Source of the DNA: Solirubrobacteraceae bacterium
GTDB lineage: Bacteria > Actinomycetota > Thermoleophilia > Solirubrobacterales > Solirubrobacteraceae
Reading direction: 5' to 3'
Length of the DNA: 64,000 nucleotides
Assembly: GCA_017882375.1 (NCBI GenBank)
Contig: JADGPP010000005.1
Span: 23,803-87,802 of the forward strand
Under the pieces are notes generated by a model. That model did no database searches. It worked only from the letters and a program-made list of their open reading frames with translations, and had not been told where the DNA came from. Positions 49,224 to 51,116 of the stretch are shown here, piece after piece. The stretch's first letter is position 1. Every line of letters begins with the position of its first letter. The position numbers and the translations under genes are program-made.

Positions 49224-49847
49224 CTACAGGCGGACGAGCAGCATCGTCCACGGAAACGGCGAGCGCAGCTCGACGACCTCGCCGTGTTGGGAGAGCAGGC
49301 GCGCAAACGAGCGCCTGGACCAGTGGTTGAGATGCCCGGGCGTGTTGCCGAGTTGACTCAGGTAGGCGCCACGGGCCATGTTCAGCATGCGCCACAGCGG
49401 CTCGCGCGGCACCGAGACCAGCAGGTGGCGCTCGGCGCAACGGGCCATCTCGGCCAGCGTGTGCTCGGGATCGGGCACGTGCTCGAGCACCTCGATCGCG
49501 GTCGCCAGGTCGAACTCGTCGGCCGCGAAGGGAAGATCCTCGGCGGGCATCGTGCGGTATTCCAGATTCGGCGCCTGGCGCTGTGACCAGCCCGCCTGGA
49601 TCGACTCCTCCTGCAGGTCGATGCCGACGACGCGCCTGCCGGGCAGGCTCTGCGCCCAGCGGTGCACGAGCACACCCTCGCCGCAGCCGACGTCGAGCAG
49701 CGATTGTGGCTCGGCGCGTGCCATCAGCTCGTCCAGCGTGCGCTCGAAGGAGCTCATCAAGCGGCGCACCACCGGGTTGGTGGAGCCGTACTTGTCGTAG
49801 GTGTTGCCGGTGACGACCCCGTCGTCTGAGACGGTCACGCCGCTCAC
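49224..49847 (-). CDS. Class I SAM-dependent methyltransferase
   Basis: SLLDVGCGEGVLVHRWAQSLPGRRVVGIDLQEESI...FDLATAIEVLEHVPDPEHTL; start overlaps the upstream GT2 stop. Confidence 0.88.
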   Translation of the reverse strand: MSGVTVSDDGVVTGNTYDKYGSTNPVVRRLMSSFERTLDELMARAEPQSLLDVGCGEGVLVHRWAQSLPGRRVVGIDLQEESIQAGWSQRQAPNLEYRTMPAEDLPFAADEFDLATAIEVLEHVPDPEHTLAEMARCAERHLLVSVPREPLWRMLNMARGAYLSQLGNTPGHLNHWSRRSFARLLSQHGEVVELRSPFPWTMLLVRL

Positions 49848-50905
49848 AGGCGCACCGCCTCCTGGCGCTCGGGCCCGCCGTGCTCGGGCCCGCCGTGCTC
49901 GGGCTCGGCTGAGGGCTGCCCAGGCGGCTGGGCCTGTCCGGCTTCGTAGTGCGAAGGCGCGACGCCTAGCGCCAGCTCGATTCGCCGCACGCGCTCGAAG
50001 GTCTTCTGGGTCATCACGCGCTGCGCGGCCAGCAGGTCGCCGATCACGCCGAGCGCGAACAGCACCACGGCGGCCATGAACAGCACGGCACCGAGAATCA
50101 GCGACTGCACGTGACCCTTGCCGTTGCCTTCGACGTAGGCGACGGTGAAGCGCACCCACACGCCGATCGAGGCCAGGCCCATCAGGAGCGCCAGGCTCCA
50201 GAACACGCGCAGCGGCTCGTACTGGGCGTAGATGCGAAAGATCGAGACGGCGTTGCGCCTGACGTAGGCGCCCATCGATGGGAACAGGCGCGACTCGCGC
50301 GTCTTGGCATTGGTGCGGATCGCGACGTGGTCGATCGCGACCAGCAGCTTGCCCGCCTGGATGATCGTCTCCAGCGTGTAGGTGAACTTGGAGACCACGA
50401 GCATCTGGATCGCCGCCTCGCGGTTGTAGGCGCGAAAGCCCGATGTGGTGTCCGGTATCGATGTCGAGGAGGCCTGGCGCACGACCCACGAGCCCAACCG
50501 CTGCAGCGTCTTCTTCAGCGGCGAGAAGTGCTCGATCCCGGTCACCTCGCGGTCGCCGACGACCATGTCCGCGCGACCCTCGAGGATCGGGCGCACCAGC
50601 CGCGCGACGTCCGGGCCGTAGTACTGGTTGTCGGCGTCGGTGTTGACGATCACGTCGGCGCCGAGCTTCAGCGCCGTGTCGATGCCCGCCTGAAAGCCGG
50701 TCGCCAGGCCCTTGTTGTTGGTCAGGCGCACGAGGTGCTCGACGCCGTGTGCGCGCGCGACGGCGACGGTGTCGTCGGTCGAGCCGTCGTCGATGACCAG
50801 CCGCTCGACGACGTCGAAGCCCTCGACCTCTCGCGGCAGATCCGCGAGCGTCTGGGGTAGCTGGTCTGCCTCGTTGAAGCAGGGGATCTGGATGATGAGC
50901 TTCAT
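49844..50905 (-). CDS. Glycosyltransferase family 2, DPM1/polyprenol-phosphate type with C-terminal TM
   Basis: MKLIIQIPCFNEADQLPQTLADLP, VIDDGSTDDTV, NTDADNQY, DTTSGFRAYNREAA. Confidence 0.92.
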   Translation of the reverse strand: MKLIIQIPCFNEADQLPQTLADLPREVEGFDVVERLVIDDGSTDDTVAVARAHGVEHLVRLTNNKGLATGFQAGIDTALKLGADVIVNTDADNQYYGPDVARLVRPILEGRADMVVGDREVTGIEHFSPLKKTLQRLGSWVVRQASSTSIPDTTSGFRAYNREAAIQMLVVSKFTYTLETIIQAGKLLVAIDHVAIRTNAKTRESRLFPSMGAYVRRNAVSIFRIYAQYEPLRVFWSLALLMGLASIGVWVRFTVAYVEGNGKGHVQSLILGAVLFMAAVVLFALGVIGDLLAAQRVMTQKTFERVRRIELALGVAPSHYEAGQAQPPGQPSAEPEHGGPEHGGPERQEAVRL

Positions 50906-51006
50906 TGCAATTGGTGCCTGAACGCGGGTCTCGCCAGCGGGGGGAGGTCAGGAGGGGGGCCTGCCCCCCTCCTGCCCAAGCAGGGGATCTGGATGATGAG
51001 CTTCAT
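50902..51006 (-). CDS. Putative 34-aa upstream ORF of the GT2 gene (MKLIIQIPCLGRRGAGPPPDLPPLARPAFRHQLQ)
   Basis: Starts in the upstream repeat copy and its TGA overlaps the GT2 ATG (ATGA). Confidence 0.4.
   Translation of the reverse strand: MKLIIQIPCLGRRGAGPPPDLPPLARPAFRHQLQ
50949..50974. terminator. GC-rich near-perfect hairpin in the divergent intergenic region
   Basis: CAGGAGGGGGGC-CT-GCCCCCCTCCTG, 12-bp stem; no T tract, so termination function is uncertain. Confidence 0.4.
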
Positions 51007-51116
51007 CGGCGAGATTGCCTAGACTTGGCTTCCGGCAGTATCCCAAAGCGCAGGCCGCAATCTCGGCGCTGGGCGCGCGGACGGCGCCGGAGCCGGCGCC
51101 AGCCGGCCGACTCTCG

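What the first reader, a model, noticed from the sequence alone, without database searches (positions are those of the whole stretch)
50877..51006. Duplicated gene start creates an upstream ORF that is translationally coupled to the glycosyltransferase
Seen directly: the first 29 bp region of the GT2 gene (minus strand ATGAAGCTCATCATCCAGATCCCCTGCTT) is repeated exactly 101 bp upstream. Translating from the upstream copy gives MKLIIQIPCLGRRGAGPPPDLPPLARPAFRHQLQ*, whose TGA overlaps the authentic ATG as ATGA. The two copies flank 72 bp containing a 12-bp-stem GC hairpin. Inference: a decoy/coupling uORF or translation-control device born from a duplication, or a recent aberrant repair event.
Basis: partly seen in the sequence, partly recalled or inferred. 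Interest (0 to 1): 0.66.

Follow-up and report, generated by a model that had tools for sequence, protein, structure and literature searches.

The report
Hairpin insertion that duplicated gene start
The repeated gene start is real and is most likely the scar of a small GC-rich hairpin element that inserted just inside the gene and duplicated its target; the same hairpin, also flanked by a copied gene end, sits at four different genes across this bacterium and its relatives, and the copies stay matched as the genes evolve.

Summary
In detail: 50877-50905 and 50978-51006 (- strand) are identical 29-mers, 101 bp apart, with 72 bp including a GC hairpin between them. The uORF and its ATGA junction read as stated. 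It is not a one-off. The same ~38-bp hairpin core occurs twice more in this genome, and each copy is also flanked by a copied gene end: 37 bp at the start of an epimerase gene and 21 bp at the end of secY. A random 44-bp site in this genome has such repeats with frequency 1.4e-4. Relatives carry it at the same glycosyltransferase (G005), at secY (G017) and at ilvB (G008). Most relatives have an empty site in which a conserved promoter abuts the ATG, so this is an insertion with target duplication. The outer copy changes together with the coding copy. Between sister species it differs at 3/29 sites, against 39% at 4-fold sites, which indicates homogenisation or constraint. The uORF is not the common denominator: G005 has lost its ATG, and secY and ilvB are hit at their 3' ends. 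In this genome, coupling remains a plausible side effect, since two genes have a uORF ending in NTGA on the start codon. The mechanism of insertion is unknown.

The parts
49844..50905 (-). GT2 glycosyltransferase gene (353 aa, MKLIIQIPCFNEADQ...)
   Evidence: ORF; orthologues in nearly all relatives
50877..50905 (-). inner repeat copy = first 29 nt of the GT2 gene
50906..50938 (-). filler V, not shared with other copies of the element; has CAGGCA at 50915-50920, the same offset from ATG as the TAGGCA before the outer copy
50939..50974 (-). hairpin core CAGGAGGGGGGCAGGCCCCCCTCCTG + ACCTCCCCCC, member of a dispersed family
   Evidence: paired with covariation
50975..50977 (-). 3-nt filler GGG between outer copy and hairpin
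50978..51006 (-). outer repeat copy of the gene start
50902..51006 (-). 34-codon uORF from the outer ATG, TGA overlapping the GT2 ATG; not conserved in G005
51016..51046 (-). promoter-like block TTGGGA-19-TAGGCA conserved upstream of the empty site in 10 relatives; ends 9 nt before the outer ATG (probably leaderless start)
   Evidence: sequence comparison; TSS not mapped

Best explanation
In the common ancestor of this species and its sister G005, a short GC-rich hairpin element of a REP/miniature-element kind inserted just inside the GT2 gene, with duplication of the target, so that the gene kept a complete start (inner copy) and a truncated copy stayed at the old promoter (outer copy). The same happened at the start of a wecB-like gene, at the 3' end of secY and (in G008) at the 3' end of ilvB. 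Since then the outer copy has been kept matched to the functional copy, most simply by slippage or gene conversion between the two short repeats, while the non-coding flanks decayed. This leaves repeats that end exactly at the coding boundary. Expression of GT2 in G000 probably starts at the old promoter and reaches the gene by reinitiation from the leaderless uORF, or from a weak promoter in V. Shown: the repeats, the family, the empty sites, the co-variation of the copies. Inferred: the duplication at insertion, the homogenisation, the expression route. Unknown: the enzyme that inserted it.
For: The hairpin core recurs in G000 at C82 and C66 and nowhere else strongly, each copy between direct repeats of 37 and 21 bp. 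The frequency of DR>=19 around random 44-nt sites in 0.7 Mb of G000 is 27/199,959. Empty sites in relatives for GT2, wecB, secY and ilvB. The conserved promoter abuts the ATG in empty sites and the outer copy in G000. G000 and G005 are sisters, 0.84 support. Same stem variant and same repeat end in both; outer copies differ 3/29 while 4-fold sites differ 70/180 (binomial about 5e-4 at 0.40), and the CCC-to-CCA change of G005 is in both copies. secY: TTC/TAG in both copies of G000, TTT/TAA in both copies of G017. Another hairpin with a 20-bp duplication at the GT2 start in G007 includes the -10 region. Stem covariation: 4 pairs with double changes, 0/500 shuffles.
Against: The inserted pieces share only the ~38-bp core; filler on both sides differs, and there are no terminal inverted repeats, so this is not a standard transposon footprint. 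Longer elements with the same hairpin and a 540-aa ORF show no flanking duplication. G000 has no match to Y1 transposase or to the 540-aa protein. Homogenisation between 19-37-bp repeats round a hairpin should also cause precise deletion, so persistence across species is odd; the secY insertion shared by the distant G000 and G017 needs several losses or two insertions. The ilvB copies differ at 10 sites, 9 of them synonymous (count by inspection), which fits a donor/recipient origin as well.
Confidence: 0.6

Rival explanations
1. Selected uORF: the outer copy is a leaderless upstream ORF that delivers ribosomes to GT2 by termination-reinitiation at ATGA, with the hairpin as a control element.
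For: Conserved promoter directly upstream of the outer ATG; uORFs end in NTGA on the start codon in both GT2 and wecB of G000; the outer copy is slower than neutral. ATGA overlaps couple translation in many prokaryotes (PMC6728339, abstract read).
Against: G005 has ATC for ATG and its frame ends 16 nt before the gene. The same hairpin and repeat layout occurs at the 3' ends of secY and ilvB. A start ATGAAG/GTGAAG gives NTGA automatically when the spacing is 2 mod 3, so two of two is weak evidence.
Confidence: 0.13
2. Gene-end replacement by recombination: a donor segment carrying hairpin, own upstream region and gene start joined the recipient gene; the outer copy is the recipient's old gene end, so the repeat stops where coding homology stops.
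For: Repeats end within 0-2 nt of the coding boundary at all four genes; ilvB copies differ mainly at synonymous sites; V has a -10-like CAGG at the expected offset in GT2 and wecB.
Against: 36/36 identity of the wecB coding copies, where relatives differ at several sites, and rare secY variants matched in both copies of one genome, would need very close donors, whose upstream regions should then also match.
Confidence: 0.14
3. Selected cis element: outer copy plus hairpin is a functional RNA or DNA unit whose match to the adjacent gene is needed (guide-like or regulatory), hence co-evolution.
For: The outer copy is always 3-8 nt 5' of the hairpin, in the same order at all sites; both copies carry the same lineage-specific changes; stem covariation.
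Against: Orientation relative to the gene differs (sense at starts, antisense at ends); no Rfam family; no effector identified; most relatives do without it.
Confidence: 0.1
4. Assembly artefact or chance repeat.
For: The genome is a draft of 172 contigs.
Against: A diverged version in an independent genome and three more sites with the same hairpin.
Confidence: 0.02

Closest known systems
REP sequences and REPINs mobilised by RAYT (Y1) transposases
   Same: Short GC-rich hairpin, gene-proximal, dispersed, stem kept by paired changes
   Different: Three copies only; no GTAG or CGTC tag; no Y1 transposase match in G000; REP-type elements are not known for 20-40-bp target duplications
IS200/IS605 elements and their left-end hairpins
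   Same: Longer relatives carry the hairpin at one end before a single large ORF and show no target duplication
   Different: The ORF is not a recognised TnpA/TnpB; the G000 copies do have duplications
IS1202-group insertion sequences with long target duplications (16-28 bp, PMC10132070)
   Same: Similar duplication length
   Different: Those have terminal inverted repeats and a DDE transposase and are ~1.5 kb; none seen here
Mycobacterial interspersed repetitive units (MIRU), from memory
   Same: Short unit whose small ORF overlaps the next start codon as NTGA
   Different: MIRUs are tandem units with a conserved ORF; here the overlap comes from a copied gene start and is not conserved
Rickettsia palindromic elements and other small mobile repeats (PMC2229807)
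   Same: Palindromic element in or at coding genes
   Different: Those insert in frame inside genes; here the gene is kept intact by duplication

Membership tests
REP / REPIN | 20-40-bp hairpin with paired changes | tested here: met
REP / REPIN | high copy number, extragenic | tested here: not met
   3 strong copies in G000
REP / REPIN | RAYT / Y1 transposase in the genome | tested here: not met
   PF01797 no match in G000, G005, G008, G017 (draft genomes)
REP / REPIN | GTAG or CGTC tag next to the palindrome | tested here: not met
   flanks read: filler differs between copies, no constant tag
Classical MITE | terminal inverted repeats | tested here: not met
   only the internal hairpin
Classical MITE | target duplication on insertion | tested here: met
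   empty sites in relatives, repeats at each copy; length 19-37 bp is far above usual
IS1202 group | target duplication of 16-28 bp | tested here: inconclusive
   19-37 bp observed
IS1202 group | DDE transposase and terminal inverted repeats | tested here: not met
   nothing of the kind in the 72-bp insert
uORF translational coupling device | start codon and stop/start overlap conserved in relatives with the arrangement | tested here: not met
   G005 has ATC and a different frame
uORF translational coupling device | uORF translated and affecting the gene | not testable with these tools
   needs reporter or ribosome profiling

The most novel reading that the evidence does not exclude
A mobile or domesticated hairpin unit that works through a copy of its neighbouring gene's end: the copy is kept matched to the gene by an active process (RNA-guided or recombination-based), and insertion takes place at coding boundaries through a mechanism that makes 20-45-bp duplications without terminal repeats or a known transposase.
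Probability: 0.13. Interest if true: 0.8.

Novelty: new variant of a known kind. Interest (0 to 1): 0.45.

Why it matters
Small hairpin insertions that spare genes by duplicating their ends, with copies that then evolve in concert, are not a standard footprint of any bacterial element known to me. They raise two testable questions: what inserts them, and why direct repeats round a hairpin, normally very unstable, persist across species. They also show how insertions can create leaderless uORFs in GC-rich genomes.

Tried and rejected
Rfam: no family. Viral contigs and phages: no hairpin core. Exact pattern in GTDB genomes: only Solirubrobacterales and Acidimicrobiia drafts. The 540-aa ORF behind the hairpin in other genera: no Pfam, NCBIfam or PDB relative, multi-copy in some actinobacterial plasmids, but absent from this genus and without flanking duplications, so not shown to be the mobiliser. 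RAYT: absent from G000. The G007 hairpin is unique in its genome and in the genus. Unbiased scan of 1.1 Mb for repeats flanking 35-160-nt spacers: only the window case looked of this kind.

Full report
What is there. On the minus strand the first 29 nt of the GT2 gene (inner copy, 50877-50905) are repeated exactly at 50978-51006 (outer copy); 72 nt lie between, made of 3 nt filler, a 26-nt hairpin, the run ACCTCCCCCC and 33 nt filler V. The outer ATG opens a 34-codon frame whose TGA overlaps the gene's ATG. The description is accurate.

It is a family. A search of the window's own genome (G000) with the region found the hairpin core at two other places. Both are flanked by direct repeats: 37 bp at the start of a UDP-GlcNAc 2-epimerase-like gene (C82; named here from its sequence, not tested against a family library) and 21 bp at the end of secY (C66). 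Random 44-nt sites in 0.7 Mb of the same genome have a repeat of at least 19 bp around them in 27 of 199,959 trials, so three of three is not chance. A covariance model found further copies in relatives: at the same GT2 start in G005, at the same secY end in G017, at the ilvB end in G008, one without repeats in G023, and several in a different, REP-like setting in G029. The stem is kept by paired changes (4 of 11 pairs, none of 500 shuffles).

It is an insertion with duplication. Most same-genus relatives have an empty GT2 start in which a conserved block TTTGGGATACTGCCGGAAGCCAAGTCTAGGCAAT lies directly before the ATG; in G000 that block precedes the outer copy, and the inner copy continues into the gene. 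The other sites are likewise empty in most relatives. Only secY (G000 and G017) and GT2 (G000 and G005) are shared. Because the -10-like TAGGCA lies 9 nt before the outer ATG, the transcript is probably leaderless there (inference; no TSS data).

The copies evolve together. G000 and G005 are sister species in a four-gene tree (support 0.84), and their GT2 insertions share the stem variant and the repeat's end, so they are most likely one event. Fourfold sites of GT2 differ by 39% between them and the region around the insertion has diverged strongly, yet the outer copies differ at only 3 of 29 sites (P about 5e-4 at a neutral rate of 0.40), and one change (CCC to CCA) is in both copies of G005. 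At secY, G000 has TTC/TAG in both copies and G017 has TTT/TAA in both. G000 and G017 are distant in the tree, so this pair means either several losses or two insertions at one place. The outer copies, which encode nothing obvious in secY or ilvB, are therefore kept similar to the coding copy. Slippage or conversion between the repeats is the simplest cause; constraint on the outer copy is the alternative. The repeats end at the coding boundary to within 0-2 nt at GT2, wecB, secY and ilvB. In a younger case with an unrelated hairpin at the GT2 start of G007, the duplication is 20 bp and includes the -10 region. This fits decay of the non-coding part and upkeep of the coding part, but it also fits recombination with donor DNA, which I keep as a rival because the ilvB copies differ at 9 synonymous positions out of 10 (counted by inspection).

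The uORF. In G000 both GT2 and the wecB-like gene have an outer-copy frame ending in NTGA on the start codon. That makes reinitiation plausible in this species. It is not the common purpose: in G005 the first codon is ATC and the frame stops 16 nt before the gene, in G007 it stops 10 nt before, and two of the four genes are hit at their 3' ends.

What moves the hairpin. In G113, G123 (CP_BM_ER_R8_22), G131 and Acidimicrobiaceae BP_113 the same hairpin, followed by a second one, stands before a 540-aa ORF of unknown family. Those longer units have recurrent ends (TAGCGGGAGG... and ...AAGTCGAACTA) and no flanking duplication. The ORF is not in this genus, homologues in Mycobacterium and Caballeronia plasmids do not carry this hairpin, and G000 has no Y1 transposase match. 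The inserting activity is therefore not identified; capture of a hairpin during repair of a staggered break would also give variable filler and 20-45-bp duplications (inference).

Verdict. What remains surprising is the long, boundary-limited, co-evolving duplication.

Noticed in passing
L094 6286-6425 (G000 C82): The wecB-like gene of the same genome has the same arrangement: 37-bp copied start, hairpin, 35-codon frame from the outer GTG ending GTGA on the gene's GTG.
   Followed up: yes
L019 2502-2591 (G007): Independent insertion of an unrelated GC hairpin at the GT2 start with a 20-bp duplication that includes the -10 region.
   Followed up: partly
L188 1725-3347; L263; L264; L185: A 540-aa protein family without Pfam, NCBIfam or PDB relatives behind the hairpin in several Actinobacteria; homologues are multi-copy on Rhodococcus and Mycobacterium plasmids. 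Possibly a new type of mobile-element protein.
   Followed up: partly
L082, L083, L084 (G029 contigs 1 and 44): About a dozen related hairpins spaced along two contigs, each preceded by CGCGATCCGCGGCCCAAC and followed by a second hairpin: a REP-like composite repeat.
   Followed up: partly
L259 2501-5921 (Mycobacterium riyadhense plasmid): Two diverged members of the 540-aa family lie in tandem (26% identity) next to IS4-family transposase genes.
   Followed up: no
L184 1935-1978 and L186 3085-3129: In Acidimicrobiia MAG nzgw83 the same hairpin sits immediately upstream of the argH and truB starts (genes named by inspection of the translations).
   Followed up: no
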